Below, piece by piece: positions 520 through 46,895 of a stretch of DNA of 61,230 bases. The DNA comes from a virus: the IMG/VR virus record IMGVR_UViG_3300007734_000738, positions 1 through 61,230 of that record; one strand, given 5' to 3'. The notes beneath the pieces were generated by a model, which was given only the letters and a program-made list of their open reading frames with translations, was not told where the DNA came from and ran no database searches. The translations under genes were made by a program, and so were the position numbers. The first letter of the stretch is position 1. Each line of letters starts with the position of its first letter.

Positions 520-537
520 CTGTTCTCGCCCTTTCGG

Positions 538-565
538 ACTCCCAGAGCCTCACGGCTCCGGGAGT
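538..565 (-). other. Intercistronic hairpin
   Basis: A 12-bp inverted repeat (arms 538-549 and 554-565, one G-U pair on the leftward transcript, 4-base loop) lies between two leftward genes, just upstream of the ribosome binding site of the DUF7666-like gene. There is no T-run, so it is more likely an mRNA stability or processing element than a strong terminator. Confidence 0.5.
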
Positions 566-576
566 CCTCCTGCCGG

Positions 577-753: not shown

Positions 754-829
754 GTGTCATCACCCCCTCTCACGTTATAGGATAGCATCGAGTGAGGGCT
801 CCCAGGGGAGCTGAGAGCCCCTCTTGAGG

Positions 830-1120
830 CTATACGAGATAGTTGGTCGCCGCCAGTTCCACGATCAAGACGGACTCCTGACCATTGAGCCCTTTGATAT
901 GGTGGGCGAGTTCGGCGGCCCACGTTCGTGTGTCCAGACATTGTTGTGGGTAGAAGTCCGTCCCGTTCGGGATCACGGCAATCTCTATGATGAGCGCGTG
1001 CTCAGGTTGACCCTTCCAGACGCCTTCCGCCGGGACGAGGGTATATCCCTCGAAGTAGGTGTCGATCAGTGGAATGAGGTCGGCTCGGTTTTTGTCTTCG
1101 GTGTAGAGTCTCAGAATCAT
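830..1120 (-). CDS. Hypothetical protein downstream of the tandem ribozymes (96 aa)
   Basis: ATG 1120 follows the GGAGGGCGAGATC cassette shared with other leftward genes. The product begins MILRLYTEDKNRADLIPLID and has a mixed alpha/beta look. No family is recognised. Its mRNA leader is made by the second hammerhead ribozyme: cleavage after position 1151 would leave a 30-nt 5' leader ahead of this start codon, so its expression may depend on that self-cleavage. Confidence 0.75.
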   Translation of the reverse strand: MILRLYTEDKNRADLIPLIDTYFEGYTLVPAEGVWKGQPEHALIIEIAVIPNGTDFYPQQCLDTRTWAAELAHHIKGLNGQESVLIVELAATNYLV

Positions 1121-1144
1121 GATCTCGCCCTCCTTGTGTGTATG

Positions 1145-1207
1145 AACCCTGACGGGTAGCCAGACGCTCCCCGTTTCGCCGGACTCCCACCGGCTCGTCA
1201 GAGGGTT
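1145..1207 (-). ncRNA. Type I hammerhead ribozyme, copy 2
   Basis: On the leftward transcript all core elements are present in order: stem I 5' strand AACCCU (1207-1202), CUGACGA (1201-1195), stem II GCCGG/CCGGC (1194-1190 with 1182-1178) and a 7-nt loop, GAA (1177-1175), stem III ACGGG/CCCGU (1174-1170 with 1156-1152), cleavage triplet GUC ending at 1151, and stem I 3' strand AGGGUU (1150-1145). Six, five and five base pairs are perfect, and stem III can extend by AGC/GCU. Stem I is open, so this is type I. Predicted cleavage lies between 1151 and 1150. Confidence 0.93.
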
Positions 1208-1238
1208 ACTCTATGGTTTCATCTTCGAGGGCCTCCTC

Positions 1239-1298
1239 ACCCTGACGGGGGAACGGTCTCCCCCGTTTCGCCGGACTCCCACCTGCTCGTCAGAGGGT
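1239..1298 (-). ncRNA. Type I hammerhead ribozyme, copy 1
   Basis: Same core as copy 2, 91 nt upstream on the leftward transcript: stem I 5' ACCCU (1298-1294), CUGACGA (1293-1287), stem II GCAGG/CCGGC with one A-G mismatch (1286-1282 with 1274-1270), GAA (1269-1267), an 8-bp stem III (1266-1259 with 1252-1245), GUC ending at 1244, and stem I 3' AGGGU (1243-1239). Stem III has a different sequence and length from copy 2 but keeps pairing, which supports function. Predicted cleavage lies between 1244 and 1243. Its first base is the first A of the upstream gene's TAA stop. Confidence 0.93.
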
Positions 1299-1462
1299 TA
1301 CGCCTGCCGGGACGTTATCCAGGCGGCTCGGTCTTCGAGATACTGGTCAATCATTCGGCAGAGGCCTTCTTTTGTCTGGCTACACATTGTCACCCCATAG
1401 CGGTCGGCTTCCCACCCCTTGCGCGTCGATTCCCATATTCTGAAACTTCGATAGCTGTTCAT
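1298..1462 (-). CDS. Small hypothetical protein (54 aa)
   Basis: ATG 1462 follows GAAGGAGCACTAAC. The product begins MNSYRSFRIWESTRKGWEAD and continues with a polar helix, and no family is recognised. The TAA stop overlaps the 5' end of hammerhead copy 1, so translation termination and ribozyme folding may interfere with each other. The upstream gene ends 2 bp before this start, an operon-like spacing. Confidence 0.7.
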   Translation of the reverse strand: MNSYRSFRIWESTRKGWEADRYGVTMCSQTKEGLCRMIDQYLEDRAAWITSRQA

Positions 1463-2915: not shown

Positions 2916-2938
2916 GATCTCGCCCTCCTTTGTTGGTG

Positions 2939-2998
2939 TAACATCCTTCCAGACTCCCGGCCAGGTCTCACGCTCGCCGGGAGGTTGCAGGGATGTTA
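2939..2998 (-). other. Structured mRNA leader with two nested stems
   Basis: On the leftward transcript an outer 8-bp stem (2998-2991 with 2946-2939) encloses an inner 8-bp stem (2983-2976 with 2961-2954). They are separated by a 7/7 internal loop and capped by a 14-nt loop. All 16 pairs are Watson-Crick. It precedes the ribosome binding site of the gene starting at 2915. No known riboswitch or ribozyme core was recognised. Confidence 0.55.
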
Positions 2999-4427: not shown

Positions 4428-4540
4428 ATTGTACAAAAATGTACACTCCTAGTCTAAAAGTGTACAAAAATGTACACTCCTACTTAAAACGTGTACAAAA
4501 ATGTACACTCCTAGTTCAAAAGTGTACAAAAATGTACACT
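4428..4540. promoter_or_regulatory. Array of four 20-bp palindromic operators at 31-bp period
   Basis: Copies of AGTGTACAAAAATGTACACT lie at 4428-4447 (one mismatch), 4459-4478 (exact), 4490-4509 (one mismatch) and 4521-4540 (exact). Each is an 8-bp inverted repeat around AAAA. The start-to-start distance is exactly 31 bp each time, close to three helical turns, so bound dimers would sit on one face of the DNA. This is the expected form of a repressor or activator array controlling both divergent units. The partner protein is not identified. Confidence 0.85.
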
Positions 4541-36773: not shown

Positions 36774-39131
36774 CTAAAATTTCGTTCCTGGTTTTTCTAA
36801 TATAATTGGCCATCTTGCGGTGATCCCCCATTCAGGATGGAGGATGTACATCCACTGCTGTGGCAATTCGTAATCGAAGTTCTGCTGAAACGCCCATTCG
36901 TCCATTCCCTTCACACTGTTGGCCACCCCAACCCCGTTCGCGATATAACTATGGTCTTCGTCAACCGTGATGTTATACACCGGGGCTGCGTGAGGTTCGA
37001 TCCAGGCGTCAGTCACTTTTGCAAATACACTCCCGCCATGAACGAGCGATTTCCATTCGCCCCCTCGGCCTTTGCCTTTCATCCCCATTTCCATTCGTAC
37101 AGGATCATGAATGCTCGGCTGATATTCCTCAAGAATTTTTGCCAACCGTCGGGCCGTATCTCCTGAAAATATCAAAGAATAGGCGTCCGACATACGTCGT
37201 CTCGTAGGGCTGGCTCCGGCCAAAATGCGGTTCACCGAGCTGAAAAATCCACATCGGAGCGCAAGCACTCTCATCTGTTCGATCAGCGAACGAGAGATTG
37301 ATGTCCTGGACACGATGATCGATCGCTTGGCGTCAATCTCCCTTCCGAATTGTGTCGTATGTCCATCCCCGAGTAACCATCCTATGAGAATCTCTTGCTG
37401 GTATTTGGGGTCGAGGGTCATGAGATCTGGACGCAATCGTTTCTCACGAGCCCCTTTCCCGCATAACGCGACCATTCTGTCACACGCCTCTGAGGAATGT
37501 ACGACAACCGATCGGCTCGTCAGTCGTTTGGTCGAAAGAAAATGTTTTGCTTTTCCGAACGCCTTCACGCACTCTTGTGCGATGAAATTGGCGTGGGCCT
37601 CCTCATTACGATGTAATGAGAAGTTCATATGGTGCAGTTTTCCATTGGCTCCCGAAATACTGCCTTCTGCAAGATACCACCCCATCAACCGACAAAAACC
37701 CATAGAAAAAGCGTGATGCTCCACGATCGTCCGATCGCACGGCACTTCAATATAATCAGACGGGGACAGATCTTCCGCCGCAATCCATCGTGCGACGGGA
37801 GCATGCAGAGCTTGAATATGTTTACCACCGATGCTCACCAGGTGCCCCACACTCGAACCTTTAATTGCCCACACCCGGTGATTCGGCGTCAACCGCAACT
37901 CTGAGGCTTTGCTCCCGCACCGCAAGACCACGAGTTGATCCGCTCCATCCCGTGTCATGACGTCAGTCACCTGGCGCACACGTCCTTGCCGACTCACGAC
38001 GCGATCGTGAATCTCAACAGTCTCGATGGGTTTTGTCGTACCGTCCTCCATCGTCACTGGTGTCCCCGATGGGAAACACCCGTTCACGATAATACCCTTC
38101 GCCATCCACAACTGGTGCCAATGACCCATTTTGAGAAAGGTGAATGGCTGGTCGATCGCCATGGCTCGTTTTCGTTTGCGATGGTCCATGATCATCAGCG
38201 GAGACAACGCGCCGGCGATTCCGCTACCGCCTTTGGCCTGGTCCCCGTGTGTCAAACAGGTGATGGTGTCATACACTTTATAGAGCAGATCCGCGCCGTC
38301 CGCGATGTTGAAGTGCACGTCGCGGTTGCCTGCATAATACTTCGCAAGGAATTGGTACAAAATCCATTCGAAATTTTCATACACCCGGTCTTTCGCCACA
38401 GGTTTTTTGTCCCAACGGCCATGATTCCCTACCACGCAGTTCACGTTGATACGAGGAAAATGTTGAAGCAGCAAATCAATGCCGGCGACCAATTGATCCA
38501 TCAAGGCGAGAATGGACTGCGAGATTGGGCATTCGTTGGTCCGGCGCAGTTCTTCATGGATCAGTCCTGAAAAGTTATCTCCTCCGAAATCGAGTACAAA
38601 ATACTCATACTTCGGGTGGGCCATGTGATGAATCAATAGTTCAACGGTCTTTGCGAAGAGCGTCTGTAACCGAGTGTTGGCGATTTTGCGATTGTACGCG
38701 TTCACGCCGTTGATCTGATTAGCTTTGACGATCTCGTCGTAATGGACATCGCTCACGAATAGGCACGGCACACCAGTCGTTGAACCTTTGGTCCGTTTCG
38801 ACAACCATGTAGGGGGTATCACCGGTTTGTCACAGTCGTGAATTAAATTCTTGATCACATGCAGACTGTCGTCGTGCGCGTCGACTCGTTTCATCGCCGA
38901 TTTGAGGTCTCCCTCAAGCCGCGTAATCTGCCGGCGTAACAGATCGGGATTATGCACATCCTCGATCCCCTTCCCAGGCGTGTACCCTTGACGTTTCGCT
39001 TCGCGAATGCGGGCGTCCATCGTATTGCGTGGGACGTTCGCGGACAAGGCGGCCCCGGTGACGGATCCAATTGAGGCCTGGAGATTCACGGCTTCTTGCA
39101 ATAAGGCCGGTGCCGTCGGTTTGGCCGCCAT
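36774..39131 (-). CDS. Metallophosphoesterase-like protein interrupted by an intein
   Basis: The exteins make a 398-residue protein. After an N-terminal helical region with ANVPRNTMDARIREAKRQG (helix-turn-helix-like) and a coiled coil come the calcineurin-like motifs VSDVHYDE, LDFGGDNFSG, NCVVGNHGRWDKK, CLTHGD and the final GHWHQL. The intein sits between Gly351 and Ser739 just after that motif. The protein may act as a phage phosphatase or nuclease in DNA metabolism. It is convergent with the giant virion gene, 4 bp away. Confidence 0.85.
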   Translation of the reverse strand: MAAKPTAPALLQEAVNLQASIGSVTGAALSANVPRNTMDARIREAKRQGYTPGKGIEDVHNPDLLRRQITRLEGDLKSAMKRVDAHDDSLHVIKNLIHDCDKPVIPPTWLSKRTKGSTTGVPCLFVSDVHYDEIVKANQINGVNAYNRKIANTRLQTLFAKTVELLIHHMAHPKYEYFVLDFGGDNFSGLIHEELRRTNECPISQSILALMDQLVAGIDLLLQHFPRINVNCVVGNHGRWDKKPVAKDRVYENFEWILYQFLAKYYAGNRDVHFNIADGADLLYKVYDTITCLTHGDQAKGGSGIAGALSPLMIMDHRKRKRAMAIDQPFTFLKMGHWHQLWMAKGIIVNGCFPSGTPVTMEDGTTKPIETVEIHDRVVSRQGRVRQVTDVMTRDGADQLVVLRCGSKASELRLTPNHRVWAIKGSSVGHLVSIGGKHIQALHAPVARWIAAEDLSPSDYIEVPCDRTIVEHHAFSMGFCRLMGWYLAEGSISGANGKLHHMNFSLHRNEEAHANFIAQECVKAFGKAKHFLSTKRLTSRSVVVHSSEACDRMVALCGKGAREKRLRPDLMTLDPKYQQEILIGWLLGDGHTTQFGREIDAKRSIIVSRTSISRSLIEQMRVLALRCGFFSSVNRILAGASPTRRRMSDAYSLIFSGDTARRLAKILEEYQPSIHDPVRMEMGMKGKGRGGEWKSLVHGGSVFAKVTDAWIEPHAAPVYNITVDEDHSYIANGVGVANSVKGMDEWAFQQNFDYELPQQWMYILHPEWGITARWPIILEKPGTKF
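36918..38078 (-). mobile_element. Intein with LAGLIDADG endonuclease in the phosphoesterase gene
   Basis: The 387-residue element begins CFPSGTPVTMEDGTTKPIET, has block B LRLTPNHRVW, two DOD motifs (LMGWYLAEGS at intein residues 131-140 and LIGWLLGDGH at 231-240) and ends SYIANGVGVAN before Ser. All splice-site residues (Cys1, His in block B, terminal Asn, +1 Ser) are present. The penultimate residue is Ala rather than His, a known natural variation. The acidic residues of both DOD motifs are intact, so the endonuclease may be active. Confidence 0.93.
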
Positions 39132-40780: not shown

Positions 40781-40793
40781 GATCTCGCCCTCC

Positions 40794-43585: not shown

Positions 43586-43966
43586 TCATAGCCCGGCGGC
43601 TTTCAAACAGAATCGTTGCCACCAGTTCTTCGGTACGAGATGTCGAAGCGTACACTCGCTCACCATCATAATGCGTGGAGATATCTGAGACGAATGCAAC
43701 GCAAGTAAATGTTTCGTCTGCGCCTCGTGCGCACGAAGCAATTCAAGCGCCATGATGGCGTACAAATTGCCATCCCCTATGGGAACTTTCTCGTAGCGTT
43801 CGGCGTACCGCACCGACGTCCACACCGCACTCACGATCGGGCTGTGTAGTCGTGCGGCATGCAATCTCCCTTTGGCATCTTCGCCCAGGTCGAACATGTT
43901 GTTGAACGGCGCGGGACTTCGCTCTAAAATGCGTTTCAGTTCACCCTCACTATTCGGCCAACTCAT
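43586..43966 (-). CDS. Hypothetical protein (126 aa)
   Basis: ATG 43966 overlaps the DNA polymerase stop by 4 bp and has GGGGGTGAC upstream. The helical product includes MSWPNSEGELKRILERSPAP and EKVPIGDGNLYAIMALELLR. No family is recognised. It is encoded with the polymerase and may be a replication accessory, from location only. Confidence 0.6.
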   Translation of the reverse strand: MSWPNSEGELKRILERSPAPFNNMFDLGEDAKGRLHAARLHSPIVSAVWTSVRYAERYEKVPIGDGNLYAIMALELLRAHEAQTKHLLALHSSQISPRIMMVSECTLRHLVPKNWWQRFCLKAAGL

Positions 43967-44767
43967 AGTGTCACCCCCAAATCGTGTAACATTGATTCGG
44001 CCTCCTTGATGTACCATTCACGATTCAGATCGTCTGGAATCAACAACGGAAGCGTCATCAGTGGTTTGGCTCCCTCACTTTTGGGTACCGTATACCCATT
44101 GTTCTTCACGGTGAAGATCTCGGTCGAATCGGTGTAGTACCATCGAATCACTTTGCCGATCGGTTCGTCTCGATAGAGTGCCCCGCCCGTGATGCTGCGA
44201 ATACAGACGAACTCCCGTATGTCCTCGCAACACGCAATCGTGCCGCGGATCGAGGCCCCGAGTGTCAGATAATCGATGACCGCCCGCGAACAGATCGTCG
44301 CCACCGGATTCTTCTGCAAGGGTAACCCCTTCCCATAGACACCCTTCGTTTTCACATCCCCGTTCGTCAAGATTGCCACATAATTATTGACATCACGCGA
44401 GTAGAGTCCCTGGTAGTCCGTGCGTTCGGTCTCGAACCCGGTGGTGGTCTCCCATTCCTTCACCACGGCGAGCGCGTCGTCAACGGAACTCTGGTGGCAG
44501 CGGACGGTCACCCCATCGGTATTGGCCGAGACGACGGTGCAGTCAAGCACCTCCGAGAGCGACTCGATCAGCATGAGGAGTGCGAGTTGTCCCGTGAGGG
44601 TGACTTGCACCATCAACCCCGGCGCGTAGAGGACCGAGAACCGCGACCCGAGTTTACCGAAAGGAACCGTTAATCTGGATCTTACAACCCTCGTTAACCA
44701 CACTGACCCTTATCAGTTCGGACTCCAATTTAGCGAGTGTGCGCTTTAATGAATCGAGATCGGGCAT
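43963..44767 (-). CDS. Family B DNA polymerase, C-terminal piece with a frame break
   Basis: ATG 44767 has GAGGAGGGAGTCC upstream. Residues 1-35 (MPDLDSLKRTLAKLESELIR, then KIQINGSF) stop at TAA 44654, but FGKLGSRFSVLYAPGL continues in the +1 frame to 43963. Joined, they give motif B (KIQINGSFGKLGSRFS) and motif C (SANTDGVTV). The break is at TCC TTT C (44665-44659): one extra T, or a +1 slip of the Phe tRNA from UUU to UUC. This fragment holds the finger, palm half and thumb. Confidence 0.85.
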
Positions 44768-45425
44768 GGACTCCCTCCTCTATGGTTTTGAAATAACCGA
44801 CATAATGTCGTATTCCTCTAATTGTGCAACGAACGATATAACCGCGCCCATCAGCATGCGGGCACACCCCGCGTTGTTTTGTCTTCGCGTTGTTCCAGAC
44901 CACTTGGTCTTTGGGTACCAATAATGAAACGGCATGCTTCCGATTGTGGGCGAATAGCGTGGCAAATTGAGTGCGAGCAGTGATCGCTTCATCTTTCGTC
45001 AGATAACGGCCAAGACGGTACCGAATGCCGAGATAACAGAAACGAGCCTCCCATTGCGCAGTGGCGATTTTCACTACCCCTACATTTCCAGACGTGTTGG
45101 TCTTTAACAATCTGCGGTTTACGCACTGGTCGCTTCTTGTCGCCCACACACAATTGGATTTGCAGTATCCGGCGTTATTGTTTTTTCGTTCAATGGTCCA
45201 GTCAGACCCAGGTCGAATGCCCATATCTTTGGCAAAATGCCGGAAGTGATGCCATACCGGATCCACTTTGATTCCTCGTCCTCCATAATTTTTATAGACA
45301 GGCGTGAGTGGGTTGTAGCACCGAGCCATCATAGACGCCCACACCGAATAGATCGGATGGGCGCGGCATCGATAGCCGTCAACGAGTTGTCTACGCGGGT
45401 GATAGGTGCGATTGTGTTTTCTCAT
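44730..45425 (-). CDS. HNH/AP2-type homing endonuclease splitting the polymerase gene (231 aa)
   Basis: An HNH-type domain (SVWASMMARCYNPLTPVYKN, YGGRGIKVDP, RPGSDWTIERKNNNAGYCKS, NCVWATRSDQCVNRR) is followed by two AP2-like DNA-binding segments (GVVKIATAQWEARFCYLGIR and GVCPHADGRGYIVRCTIRGI). The start is uncertain; MRKHNRTYHP at 45425 is preferred. Both ends overlap polymerase coding in other frames (45391-45425 and 44730-44767), leaving no room for a group I intron. It is therefore an endonuclease gene inserted directly between polymerase halves. Confidence 0.88.
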   Translation of the reverse strand: MRKHNRTYHPRRQLVDGYRCRAHPIYSVWASMMARCYNPLTPVYKNYGGRGIKVDPVWHHFRHFAKDMGIRPGSDWTIERKNNNAGYCKSNCVWATRSDQCVNRRLLKTNTSGNVGVVKIATAQWEARFCYLGIRYRLGRYLTKDEAITARTQFATLFAHNRKHAVSLLVPKDQVVWNNAKTKQRGVCPHADGRGYIVRCTIRGIRHYVGYFKTIEEGVHARSRFIKAHTR

Positions 45426-46506
45426 TTTCCAAATTATATATTTCTTTTTTGATATTTGCAATCTCTTTTTTGAGTTCACTTGCCCGTCGTTTTGCCTTGA
45501 CTCGCTGGTTGAATAAATCCCGGTATACCTGCAAAAATGATGGACCAATGTGAGGAGGGCGCAATTCTTGGTTGAGAATAATCATTGGATAGTACGACGT
45601 CACGTCGAAATCCATCAACACATAGTCGTCGGTCGCCTCGACCACCTGGCATTCTTCTGTCGAATGCAATCCCCCAATGCCCATTTTGAACGTGGCGGTC
45701 CCTGTCGTGAGTGTTTTATTCGCGAGCGCTTTCGGCATAAGGACTGATCCTTTGTCGTTCACGACGAACTCGGACTGCCGAACCGCATCGAGGACATCGA
45801 ATCGGCGAAACGTCATCCAGTCTGGGATCGTATACTGGTATTTATTACCCGCAAGATCACCAGGTTTGAACACCCGTTCGCCCACAATCTTTTCACACTC
45901 GCTGCGAATCACAGCCTCGGCCACCTGGGCATCGGACTTGCTCCGGAGATCGATGCCGTAGGTCGCCGACATCTGTTCACGCAATTCGAGTTGTACCTTC
46001 AACGAGCGATAGAGATCGGTCGTCGTCTCTAAGTCGTTCGAACAATACTCCGTAAGAATCGCGATCTGCTCCGGCGTGACGTGGGTGTCGTGCTGAATGG
46101 GCAATTCCTGAATGAACCGCGAGTGCATCCTGCCGCCATAGAGTTTCAGACTGCCCGCCATCGGCGCCACGTCCATCAGGTCGACGTGATCGAGCCCCGT
46201 CGGGTTCAACTTCACGTTGAATTCTTTCTCGAAGTGCCACGGTTTCAGATGATGCACAATGATCCGGTTGCTGGCCTTCTTGATCTCCTCCGCCGTGGCG
46301 CCCTTCAATGCGAGCATCAGGATAGGGATGTCATACCCCTGGCCGTTAAACGTGATCAACCGATGTTCTCGGATGACCTTCCGAAGCGCCGGTAGATCCA
46401 TCGGATGTTCGAACTTGAATTCTTCGCGCGTCTCAACATTCCGGAAATAAAACAGGGTCCAATTCCAGAAGACTTCACTGTCAAAGACGAGGACCGGTCG
46501 AGTCAT
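45391..46506 (-). CDS. Family B DNA polymerase, N-terminal piece (371 aa)
   Basis: ATG 46506 overlaps the upstream stop (ATGA). It contains the 3'-5' exonuclease motifs FDSEV (D9, E11), ITFNGQGYD (N54, D59) and YCSND (Y154, D158), and polymerase motif A DFDVTSYYP (299-307). It ends after a Lys/Glu coiled coil (RVKAKRRASELKKEIANIKK) at the junction with the endonuclease gene. The missing palm motifs are on the downstream piece. Both pieces have their own start signals, so an active two-chain polymerase is possible. Confidence 0.9.
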   Translation of the reverse strand: MTRPVLVFDSEVFWNWTLFYFRNVETREEFKFEHPMDLPALRKVIREHRLITFNGQGYDIPILMLALKGATAEEIKKASNRIIVHHLKPWHFEKEFNVKLNPTGLDHVDLMDVAPMAGSLKLYGGRMHSRFIQELPIQHDTHVTPEQIAILTEYCSNDLETTTDLYRSLKVQLELREQMSATYGIDLRSKSDAQVAEAVIRSECEKIVGERVFKPGDLAGNKYQYTIPDWMTFRRFDVLDAVRQSEFVVNDKGSVLMPKALANKTLTTGTATFKMGIGGLHSTEECQVVEATDDYVLMDFDVTSYYPMIILNQELRPPHIGPSFLQVYRDLFNQRVKAKRRASELKKEIANIKKEIYNLENEKTQSHLSPA

Positions 46507-46895
46507 CGGAATCGCGCCCATTGGCTGAGTAACCATGGCGACATACGTTCGGTCAGGTGATGATCTGCGAGATACACCGTATCCTTACTAGCTCCTCGTA
46601 CACCCGGGTCATGGTGCAGATTCCCTCGTTCGGTTGCGACGGATGCGGCATACACGAGAATCGAACCGTTCTCTTCTTTGCCAACATAGACCTGTTGACC
46701 CCATGAAACTGTGCGCACACGCAGTTTCATTCCCTCAACGACTGAGGTGAAAATTGTTCGGACAATCTGATCAACGTTACGTCGTGTGTCGCACCAGATC
46801 ACTACCGTGGCGTGTTCCTTCGTGACGACACGCAAGGCTTCCTGTACCATGCGTGTCGTGCGGCCGGTGCCTCGGAGATGTTTGAACGGATCCAC
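46503..46895 (-). CDS. P-loop ATPase-like protein (130 aa)
   Basis: GTG 46895 with GGAGCACTGAG upstream is the likely start. HLRGTGRTTRMVQEALR is a Walker A-like loop (GTGRTT), and VVIWCDTRRNVDQIVRTIF looks like the following strand. This small NTPase-like form (no clear Walker B) is seen in phage replication modules. Function is unassigned. Confidence 0.6.
   Translation of the reverse strand: MDPFKHLRGTGRTTRMVQEALRVVTKEHATVVIWCDTRRNVDQIVRTIFTSVVEGMKLRVRTVSWGQQVYVGKEENGSILVYAASVATERGNLHHDPGVRGASKDTVYLADHHLTERMSPWLLSQWARFR

What the first reader, a model, noticed from the sequence alone, without database searches (positions are those of the whole stretch)
1145..1298. Two tandem type I hammerhead ribozymes in an early phage operon
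Both copies contain CUGACGA, GAA, GUC and three stems with the right topology. Stem III changed in sequence and length yet keeps perfect pairing (compensated), which supports functional RNA. They lie 91 nt apart, so double cleavage would release a 93-nt RNA with a 5'-OH and a 2',3'-cyclic phosphate: ends that suit RNA ligases and resemble the processing of tandem hammerhead retrozyme-type RNAs into circles. The second cut lies 30 nt before the start of a downstream gene, so it may set that gene's 5' end.
Basis: partly seen in the sequence, partly recalled or inferred. Interest (0 to 1): 0.92.

Follow-up and report, generated by a model that had tools for sequence, protein, structure and literature searches.

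The report
Paired self-cutting RNAs between phage genes
Two hammerhead self-cleaving RNAs sit unusually close together between two small genes of an uncultured phage and most likely cut the shared messenger RNA into single-gene pieces, a role already proposed for phage hammerheads; nothing found supports the suggested RNA circle.

Summary
On the minus strand there are two complete type I hammerhead (HHR) consensus structures: HHR1 1298-1239 (cut 1244/1243) and HHR2 1207-1145 (cut 1151/1150). A covariance model built only from other viral HHRs finds both (E 1.5e-7, 1.9e-7) and nothing else credible in the window. The copies are 98% identical over 41 nt. Corrections: HHR1's stem II carries an A-G mismatch, and HHR2's stem III is not perfectly paired.

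Best explanation: intercistronic mRNA processing. In 141 similar viral HHRs the upstream gene's stop codon overlaps or adjoins stem I (57% against 3.5% in shifted controls; 77% with the core's own TGA), and an SD plus start lies 15-45 nt after the cut (42% against 6%). Both window copies fit. The 93-nt middle piece has an SD and a four-codon mini-ORF, so it looks like an HHR-gene-HHR unit with almost no gene left.

Circle formation is unsupported: the record has no detectable RtcB or RNA ligase, and Perreault et al. 2011, who described clustered phage HHRs and proposed mRNA processing, found no circles. The 92-nt spacing is exceptional (other pairs at least 247 nt apart; no close pair in targeted scans). 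Activity is untested.

The parts
1239..1298 (-). HHR1, type I hammerhead ribozyme; stem I 1298-1294/1243-1239, core CUGACGA 1293-1287, stem II 1286-1282/1274-1270 with A1284-G1272 mismatch, GAA 1269-1267, stem III 1266-1258/1253-1245 (9 bp)
   Evidence: covariance model R1 29.7 bits, E 1.5e-7
1145..1207 (-). HHR2, type I hammerhead ribozyme; stem I 1207-1202/1150-1145, core 1201-1195, stem II 1194-1190/1182-1178 (5 bp perfect), GAA 1177-1175, stem III 1174-1152 (5 bp + mismatch + 3 bp)
   Evidence: covariance model R1 29.4 bits, E 1.9e-7
1243..1244 (-). predicted cleavage site 1 (C1244^A1243)
   Evidence: GUC of the consensus; inferred, not tested
1150..1151 (-). predicted cleavage site 2 (C1151^A1150)
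   Evidence: GUC of the consensus; inferred, not tested
1151..1243 (-). 93-nt RNA released if both ribozymes cut; holds SD, mini-ORF and all of HHR2 except the 3' strand of its stem I
   Evidence: sequence
1232..1238 (-). Shine-Dalgarno GAGGAGG in the leader after cut 1
   Evidence: duplex with anti-SD -12.2 kcal/mol
1211..1222 (-). mini-ORF AUG AAA CCA UAG (M-K-P-stop), start 21 nt after cut 1, stop just upstream of HHR2
1298..1462 (-). upstream gene, 54 aa, unknown function; its stop codon TAA (1300-1298) runs into the first base of HHR1 stem I
   Evidence: no PHROG or Pfam match
830..1120 (-). downstream gene, 96 aa; weak match to phrog_16022 (unknown function); start codon 30 nt after cut 2
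1129..1135 (-). Shine-Dalgarno AAGGAGG of the downstream gene, part of a ribosome-binding module repeated in front of other genes of the cluster
   Evidence: (family D2)
1261..1301 (-). 41-nt direct repeat, copy in HHR1
   Evidence: family D3, 98% identical
1169..1209 (-). 41-nt direct repeat, copy in HHR2
   Evidence: family D3
1168..1251 (-). alternative chimeric type III hammerhead: site 1 paired with the core of HHR2 (stem III 6 bp, closed stem I 5 bp, stem II 5 bp)
   Evidence: Rfam Hammerhead_3 39.3 bits, E 3.4e-6, below gathering score; pairing and energy checked

Best explanation
Two self-cleaving type I hammerheads act as punctuation in a polycistronic phage transcript read from the minus strand. 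Each would cut just after the stop codon of the reading frame before it. The cut leaves the upstream mRNA with a 3' end made of the ribozyme's stems II and III and a 2',3'-cyclic phosphate, and leaves the downstream gene with a short leader that starts with a 5'-OH and carries its SD. Shown here: the two consensus structures, their position relative to stop and start codons, and the same positional rule across 141 other viral hammerheads. Inferred: that both cut, and that the new ends change mRNA stability or decouple the two genes. The 93-nt middle piece is most likely what remains of a duplicated hammerhead, or of an HHR-gene-HHR unit reduced to a four-codon reading frame, released as a by-product. 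Site 1 has a possible second route: if the stem II mismatch weakens HHR1, the intact core of HHR2 can pair with site 1 in a type III arrangement.
For: Independent covariance model finds both copies, E 1.5e-7 and 1.9e-7. In 141 distinct viral type I hammerheads a stop codon of an upstream ORF of at least 60 codons ends from -12 to 0 of the core C (motif letters excluded) in 57%, against 3.5% at shifted positions (odds ratio 36, P 3e-59); counting the TGA inside the core as well, 77% against 5%. An SD plus start codon lies 15-45 nt after the cut in 42% against 6% (P 1e-27). The window's stops end at -4 (HHR1) and, for the mini-ORF, -9 (HHR2), and its starts lie 21 and 30 nt after the cuts. In all 33 survey loci with several hammerheads every copy is on one strand. 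Tested tandem hammerheads (Clostridium scindens, Azorhizobium, Agrobacterium) do cut in vitro, and the Agrobacterium ones also in E. coli (PMC3088659). The type III chimera is supported by Rfam.
Against: No cleavage data for this phage. In isolation neither copy has the full hammerhead as its predicted minimum: the fold is 2.4 (HHR1) and 0.8 (HHR2) kcal/mol above it, and fold z-scores are unremarkable. HHR1 has a stem II mismatch. Twenty-eight records related by terminase show no credible hammerhead, so conservation at this site could not be shown. Tertiary contacts between loop II and stem I were not identified. Survey positions rest on simple ORF calls, and the survey was chosen by a sequence pattern.
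Confidence: 0.7

Rival explanations
1. A recent local duplication of one working hammerhead; the second copy is redundant, HHR1 is decaying (stem II mismatch), and the close spacing has no function of its own.
For: 98% identity over 41 nt between copies; no other pair as close was found; HHR1 mismatch.
Against: Stem III differs in sequence and length yet pairs in both copies, and both cores are intact, so both seem to have been kept. The leader after cut 1 also has SD and AUG at the usual distance.
Confidence: 0.3
2. The pair exists to release the 93-nt RNA, which is ligated into a small circle (by the hammerhead itself or by a host RtcB-type ligase) and acts as a stable regulatory RNA.
For: Both cuts would give matching 5'-OH and 2',3'-cyclic phosphate ends, and a circle would rebuild a full type I hammerhead. 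Stem I is the same in both copies, which helps religation. The close spacing is exceptional.
Against: No RtcB (PF01139), RNA_ligase (PF09414) or AAA_33 (PF13671) domain found in the record. Circles and spliced products were sought and not found for other phage tandem hammerheads (PMC3088659). The linear 93-nt piece is no more stable than shuffles (z -0.30). No relatives are known that could show the spacer conserved.
Confidence: 0.07
3. Tandem hammerhead splicing: both sites cut, the 93-nt piece leaves, and the upstream 3' end is religated to the downstream 5' end in HHR1, because AGGGU at both sites pairs with the same stem I strand.
For: Stem I is identical over 5 bp in both copies; within-contig stem I identity is high in the survey (0.74 against 0.33 between contigs). 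Hammerheads can ligate in principle (established knowledge).
Against: Shared stem I may simply reflect duplication and the overlapping stop codon. Perreault et al. looked for spliced products of tandem phage hammerheads and found none.
Confidence: 0.05
4. Chance hammerhead-like sequences in a GC-rich phage.
For: Minimal-fold predictions and z-scores are unremarkable.
Against: About 0.005 expected per window; E about 1e-7 each; position relative to stop and start codons fits the class.
Confidence: 0.02

Closest known systems
Clustered type I-III hammerheads of prophages and phages (Perreault et al. 2011, PMC3088659), including the triple arrangement around ardA in Agrobacterium tumefaciens
   Same: Consensus core, multiple copies between phage genes, proposed processing of long transcripts; three such sets shown to cut in vitro, one in E. 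coli
   Different: Those flank genes or gene blocks; here only 31 nt with a four-codon reading frame lie between the two ribozymes. This pair is untested
Type I hammerheads in IMG/VR phage contigs found here (e.g. L090 with nine copies, L036, L032, L062)
   Same: Stop codon at or in stem I or the core, SD and start about 25-30 nt after the cut, all copies on one strand
   Different: Neighbouring copies at least 247 nt apart; mostly shorter stem II; the 5-bp stem II with loop UGGGAGU was not found elsewhere
Retrozymes and other small circular RNAs with hammerheads (PMC4918200, PMC6155905)
   Same: Tandem hammerheads that could release a unit RNA with ligatable ends
   Different: No dispersed copies, 93 nt rather than 600-1000 nt, phage gene cluster as context, no evidence of circles
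Dimeric hammerheads of viroid and newt RNAs (Forster et al. 1988, as cited in PMC6155905)
   Same: Two adjacent copies could cooperate in one fold
   Different: Here each copy has its own sufficient stem III; the cooperative form proposed is a type III chimera in which site 1 uses the core of HHR2

Membership tests
Type I hammerhead ribozyme | Core C3 U4 G5 A6 N7 G8 A9, G12 A13 A14, A15.1-U16.1 and H17 | tested here: met
   Present in both copies
Type I hammerhead ribozyme | Three stems with stem I open | tested here: met
   Stem I 5-6 bp open; stems II and III closed
Type I hammerhead ribozyme | Standard pairs directly next to the core | tested here: met
   Met in both; the A-G mismatch in stem II of HHR1 and the G-A mismatch in stem III of HHR2 lie away from the core
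Type I hammerhead ribozyme | Profile match: Rfam gathering score | tested here: not met
   No match at gathering score. This is a curation threshold, not a defining trait; the phage-derived model R1 scores both at E about 1e-7
Type I hammerhead ribozyme | Loop II to stem I tertiary contact | tested here: inconclusive
   Flanks compared by eye with GC-rich viral hammerheads; no clear receptor found
Type I hammerhead ribozyme | Self-cleavage after H17 | not testable with these tools
   Needs transcription in vitro
Phage intercistronic hammerhead (as in PMC3088659) | Between co-directional genes, same strand | tested here: met
   Lies between ORFs 1462-1298 and 1120-830, both minus strand
Phage intercistronic hammerhead (as in PMC3088659) | Processed mRNA ends at the cut in vivo | not testable with these tools
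   No RNA data
Retrozyme | Hammerheads in terminal repeats around a 600-1000 nt unit, dispersed copies | tested here: not met
   Unit is 93 nt; the record holds only these two adjacent copies
Circular RNA producer | Ligase for 5'-OH and 2',3'-cyclic phosphate ends | tested here: inconclusive
   None detected in the record; a host enzyme or self-ligation cannot be excluded

The most novel reading that the evidence does not exclude
The pair is a selected minimal two-cut device: it frees a 93-nt RNA with SD and a three-residue mini-ORF, as a circle or as a stable linear RNA, with site 1 cut either by HHR1 or by HHR2 in a type III arrangement, so that the order of cutting sets the fate of the middle piece.
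Probability: 0.08. Interest if true: 0.8.

Novelty: new member of a known kind. Interest (0 to 1): 0.42.

Why it matters
What hammerheads do in phages has stayed open since they were found. The survey made while checking this case gives a testable rule: the ribozyme begins where one gene stops, and the next gene starts about 25-30 nt after the cut, which points to mRNA punctuation. The stop-codon overlap is not mentioned in the main text of Perreault et al. 2011 (no occurrence of 'stop codon'), though the wider literature could not be searched fully. The close pair here is a compact construct for asking whether double cutting, splicing or circle formation ever follows.

Tried and rejected
Rfam at gathering score (no hit) and each copy alone (only weak type III matches). 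Relatives of the flanking proteins P0001, P0002 and the 54-aa protein: none found in IMG/VR (P0001, P0002), in phage records or in 24 terminase-related records, so conservation of the site could not be tested. Terminase relatives searched with RF00163 and with R1: no credible hammerhead. Close-tandem patterns in viral contigs and genome contigs: hits checked, no true pair; the one close 'pair', in L241, looks like a tandemly repeated coding sequence. These patterns require CGAAAC in both copies and limited stem II lengths, so other close pairs could exist. Idea that the spacer is a copied tail of the upstream gene: an 8-nt match (CTCGAAGA) only, reached by 119 of 1000 shuffles, dropped. Stem III as compensated covariation between the two copies: too few changes to count; class-level covariation was counted instead, but that alignment was picked by a scanner that requires pairing, so it does not prove structure by itself. 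First version of the stop-codon statistic counted the TGA that is part of the core; recounted without motif letters. The CRISPR-DR57 hit at 234-198 is far below its gathering score and taken as chance.

Full report
What is there. On the minus strand of the window, between a 54-aa ORF (1462-1298) and a 96-aa ORF (1120-830), lie two type I hammerhead consensus structures. HHR1 occupies 1298-1239 and HHR2 1207-1145; the predicted cuts are C1244^A1243 and C1151^A1150, leaving a 93-nt fragment. The two share a 41-nt repeat at 98% identity, 92 nt apart. HHR1 has a 9-bp stem III but an A-G mismatch in the middle of stem II; HHR2 has a perfect 5-bp stem II and a stem III of 5 bp, a mismatch and 3 bp.

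More than chance. A structural scan of 400 simulated windows gave two hits in all. A covariance model, R1, was built from 22 other viral hammerheads, none from this window; run without filters over the whole window it puts the two copies first at E 1.5e-7 and 1.9e-7, and the next hit is at 0.54. Rfam's own models miss the copies at gathering score. Below it, the best hit is a type III arrangement made of the 3' half of HHR1's stem III and the core of HHR2. That is a real alternative pairing: 6-bp stem III, 5-bp closed stem I, 5-bp stem II, so HHR2's core could in principle cut site 1 as well.

What the class does. Thirty-three loci hold several copies, up to nine in L090, and in all 33 every copy is on one strand. 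Among 141 distinct copies with flanks, the stop codon of an upstream ORF of at least 60 codons ends between -12 and 0 of the core C in 57%, against 3.5% of shifted positions. A further 32 of 141 use the TGA inside the CTGANGA core as that stop; as this TGA is fixed by the motif it is weaker evidence (62 of 682 non-hammerhead CTGANGA motifs do the same). An SD and start codon of a long ORF lies 15-45 nt past the cut in 42%, against 6%; typical starts lie 22-30 nt after the cut. The ribozymes thus begin where translation of one gene ends and cut just before the leader of the next.

The window fits that rule. The TAA of the 54-aa ORF runs into the first base of stem I of HHR1. After cut 1 there is GAGGAGG and an AUG at 21 nt, but the frame is only AUG AAA CCA UAG, ending just before HHR2. 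After cut 2 there is AAGGAGG and the AUG of the 96-aa gene at 30 nt. The SD-start stretch of that gene, AAGGAGGGCGAGATCATG, recurs in front of several other genes of the cluster that have no hammerhead. This suggests that a hammerhead module was inserted, or kept, upstream of a standard ribosome-binding module (inference).

How unusual the pair is. In the survey the closest neighbouring copies are 247 nt apart (no closer pair with R1). Three pattern scans of viral contigs and one of genome contigs for pairs about 70-140 nt apart gave hits, but none was a true pair on inspection. The spacing is therefore exceptional in what could be searched, but the patterns do not cover all variants.

Mechanism. 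The best reading is mRNA punctuation. The precedent is direct: Perreault et al. 2011 (PMC3088659) described clustered hammerheads around genes in prophages, proposed processing into shorter mRNAs, showed cleavage in vitro for three sets and in E. coli for one, and reported failing to detect spliced or circular products. Effects of a 5'-OH and of a structured 3' end on mRNA stability are inference here. The circle idea has no positive evidence: the 93-nt piece is not unusually stable and no RtcB, RNA_ligase or AAA_33 domain was found in the record; host enzymes or self-ligation remain possible.

Setting. The record is a tailed phage with terminase, portal or head-tail adaptor, primase-helicase, DNA polymerase, Gp2.5-like ssDNA-binding protein, ThyX and nucleotide pyrophosphohydrolases. 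The minus-strand genes around the hammerheads have no known function, so 'early operon' is unproven. Relatives of the flanking proteins were not found, so conservation of this site could not be tested.

Verdict. The positional rule across viral hammerheads is the more valuable result.

Noticed in passing
L003-L122 (IMG/VR loci): Viral type I hammerheads begin at the upstream gene's stop codon (57% against 3.5% in controls, motif letters excluded) and cut shortly before the next SD and start; all copies of a locus are on one strand.
   Followed up: partly
L090, L036, L032, L009, L062: Single contigs with five to nine type I hammerheads in a row; in the survey stem I is more alike within a contig (74% identity) than between contigs (33%) while stems II and III vary.
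   Followed up: partly
window 2937-2998 (-): Long irregular hairpin between genes with the same layout as the hammerheads: stop codon in the 5' arm, then the repeated SD-start module. No Rfam match; possibly a processing site or an undescribed structured RNA.
   Followed up: partly
window 780-842 and 535-575 (-): Two more intergenic hairpins in the same gene cluster, one with the upstream stop codon in its 5' arm.
   Followed up: no
window 1135-1117, 2930-2912, 3813-3795, 3986-3968, 4280-4262, also near 40790 and 40880 (-): Conserved ribosome-binding module AAGGAGGGCGAGA(T)C-ATG in front of many minus-strand genes.
   Followed up: partly
window 4430-4540: Three tandem 31-nt repeats with the palindrome GTGTACAAAAATGTACAC near a change of gene direction; looks like an operator or iteron array.
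   Followed up: no
window 36774-39131 (-): Exonuclease-like protein that seems to be interrupted by an intein with Hint and LAGLIDADG domains.
   Followed up: no
window 43963-46536 (-): DNA polymerase family match is split over two ORFs (profile 48-404 and 411-653) with about 690 bases between; the ORF there has no Pfam match.
   Followed up: partly
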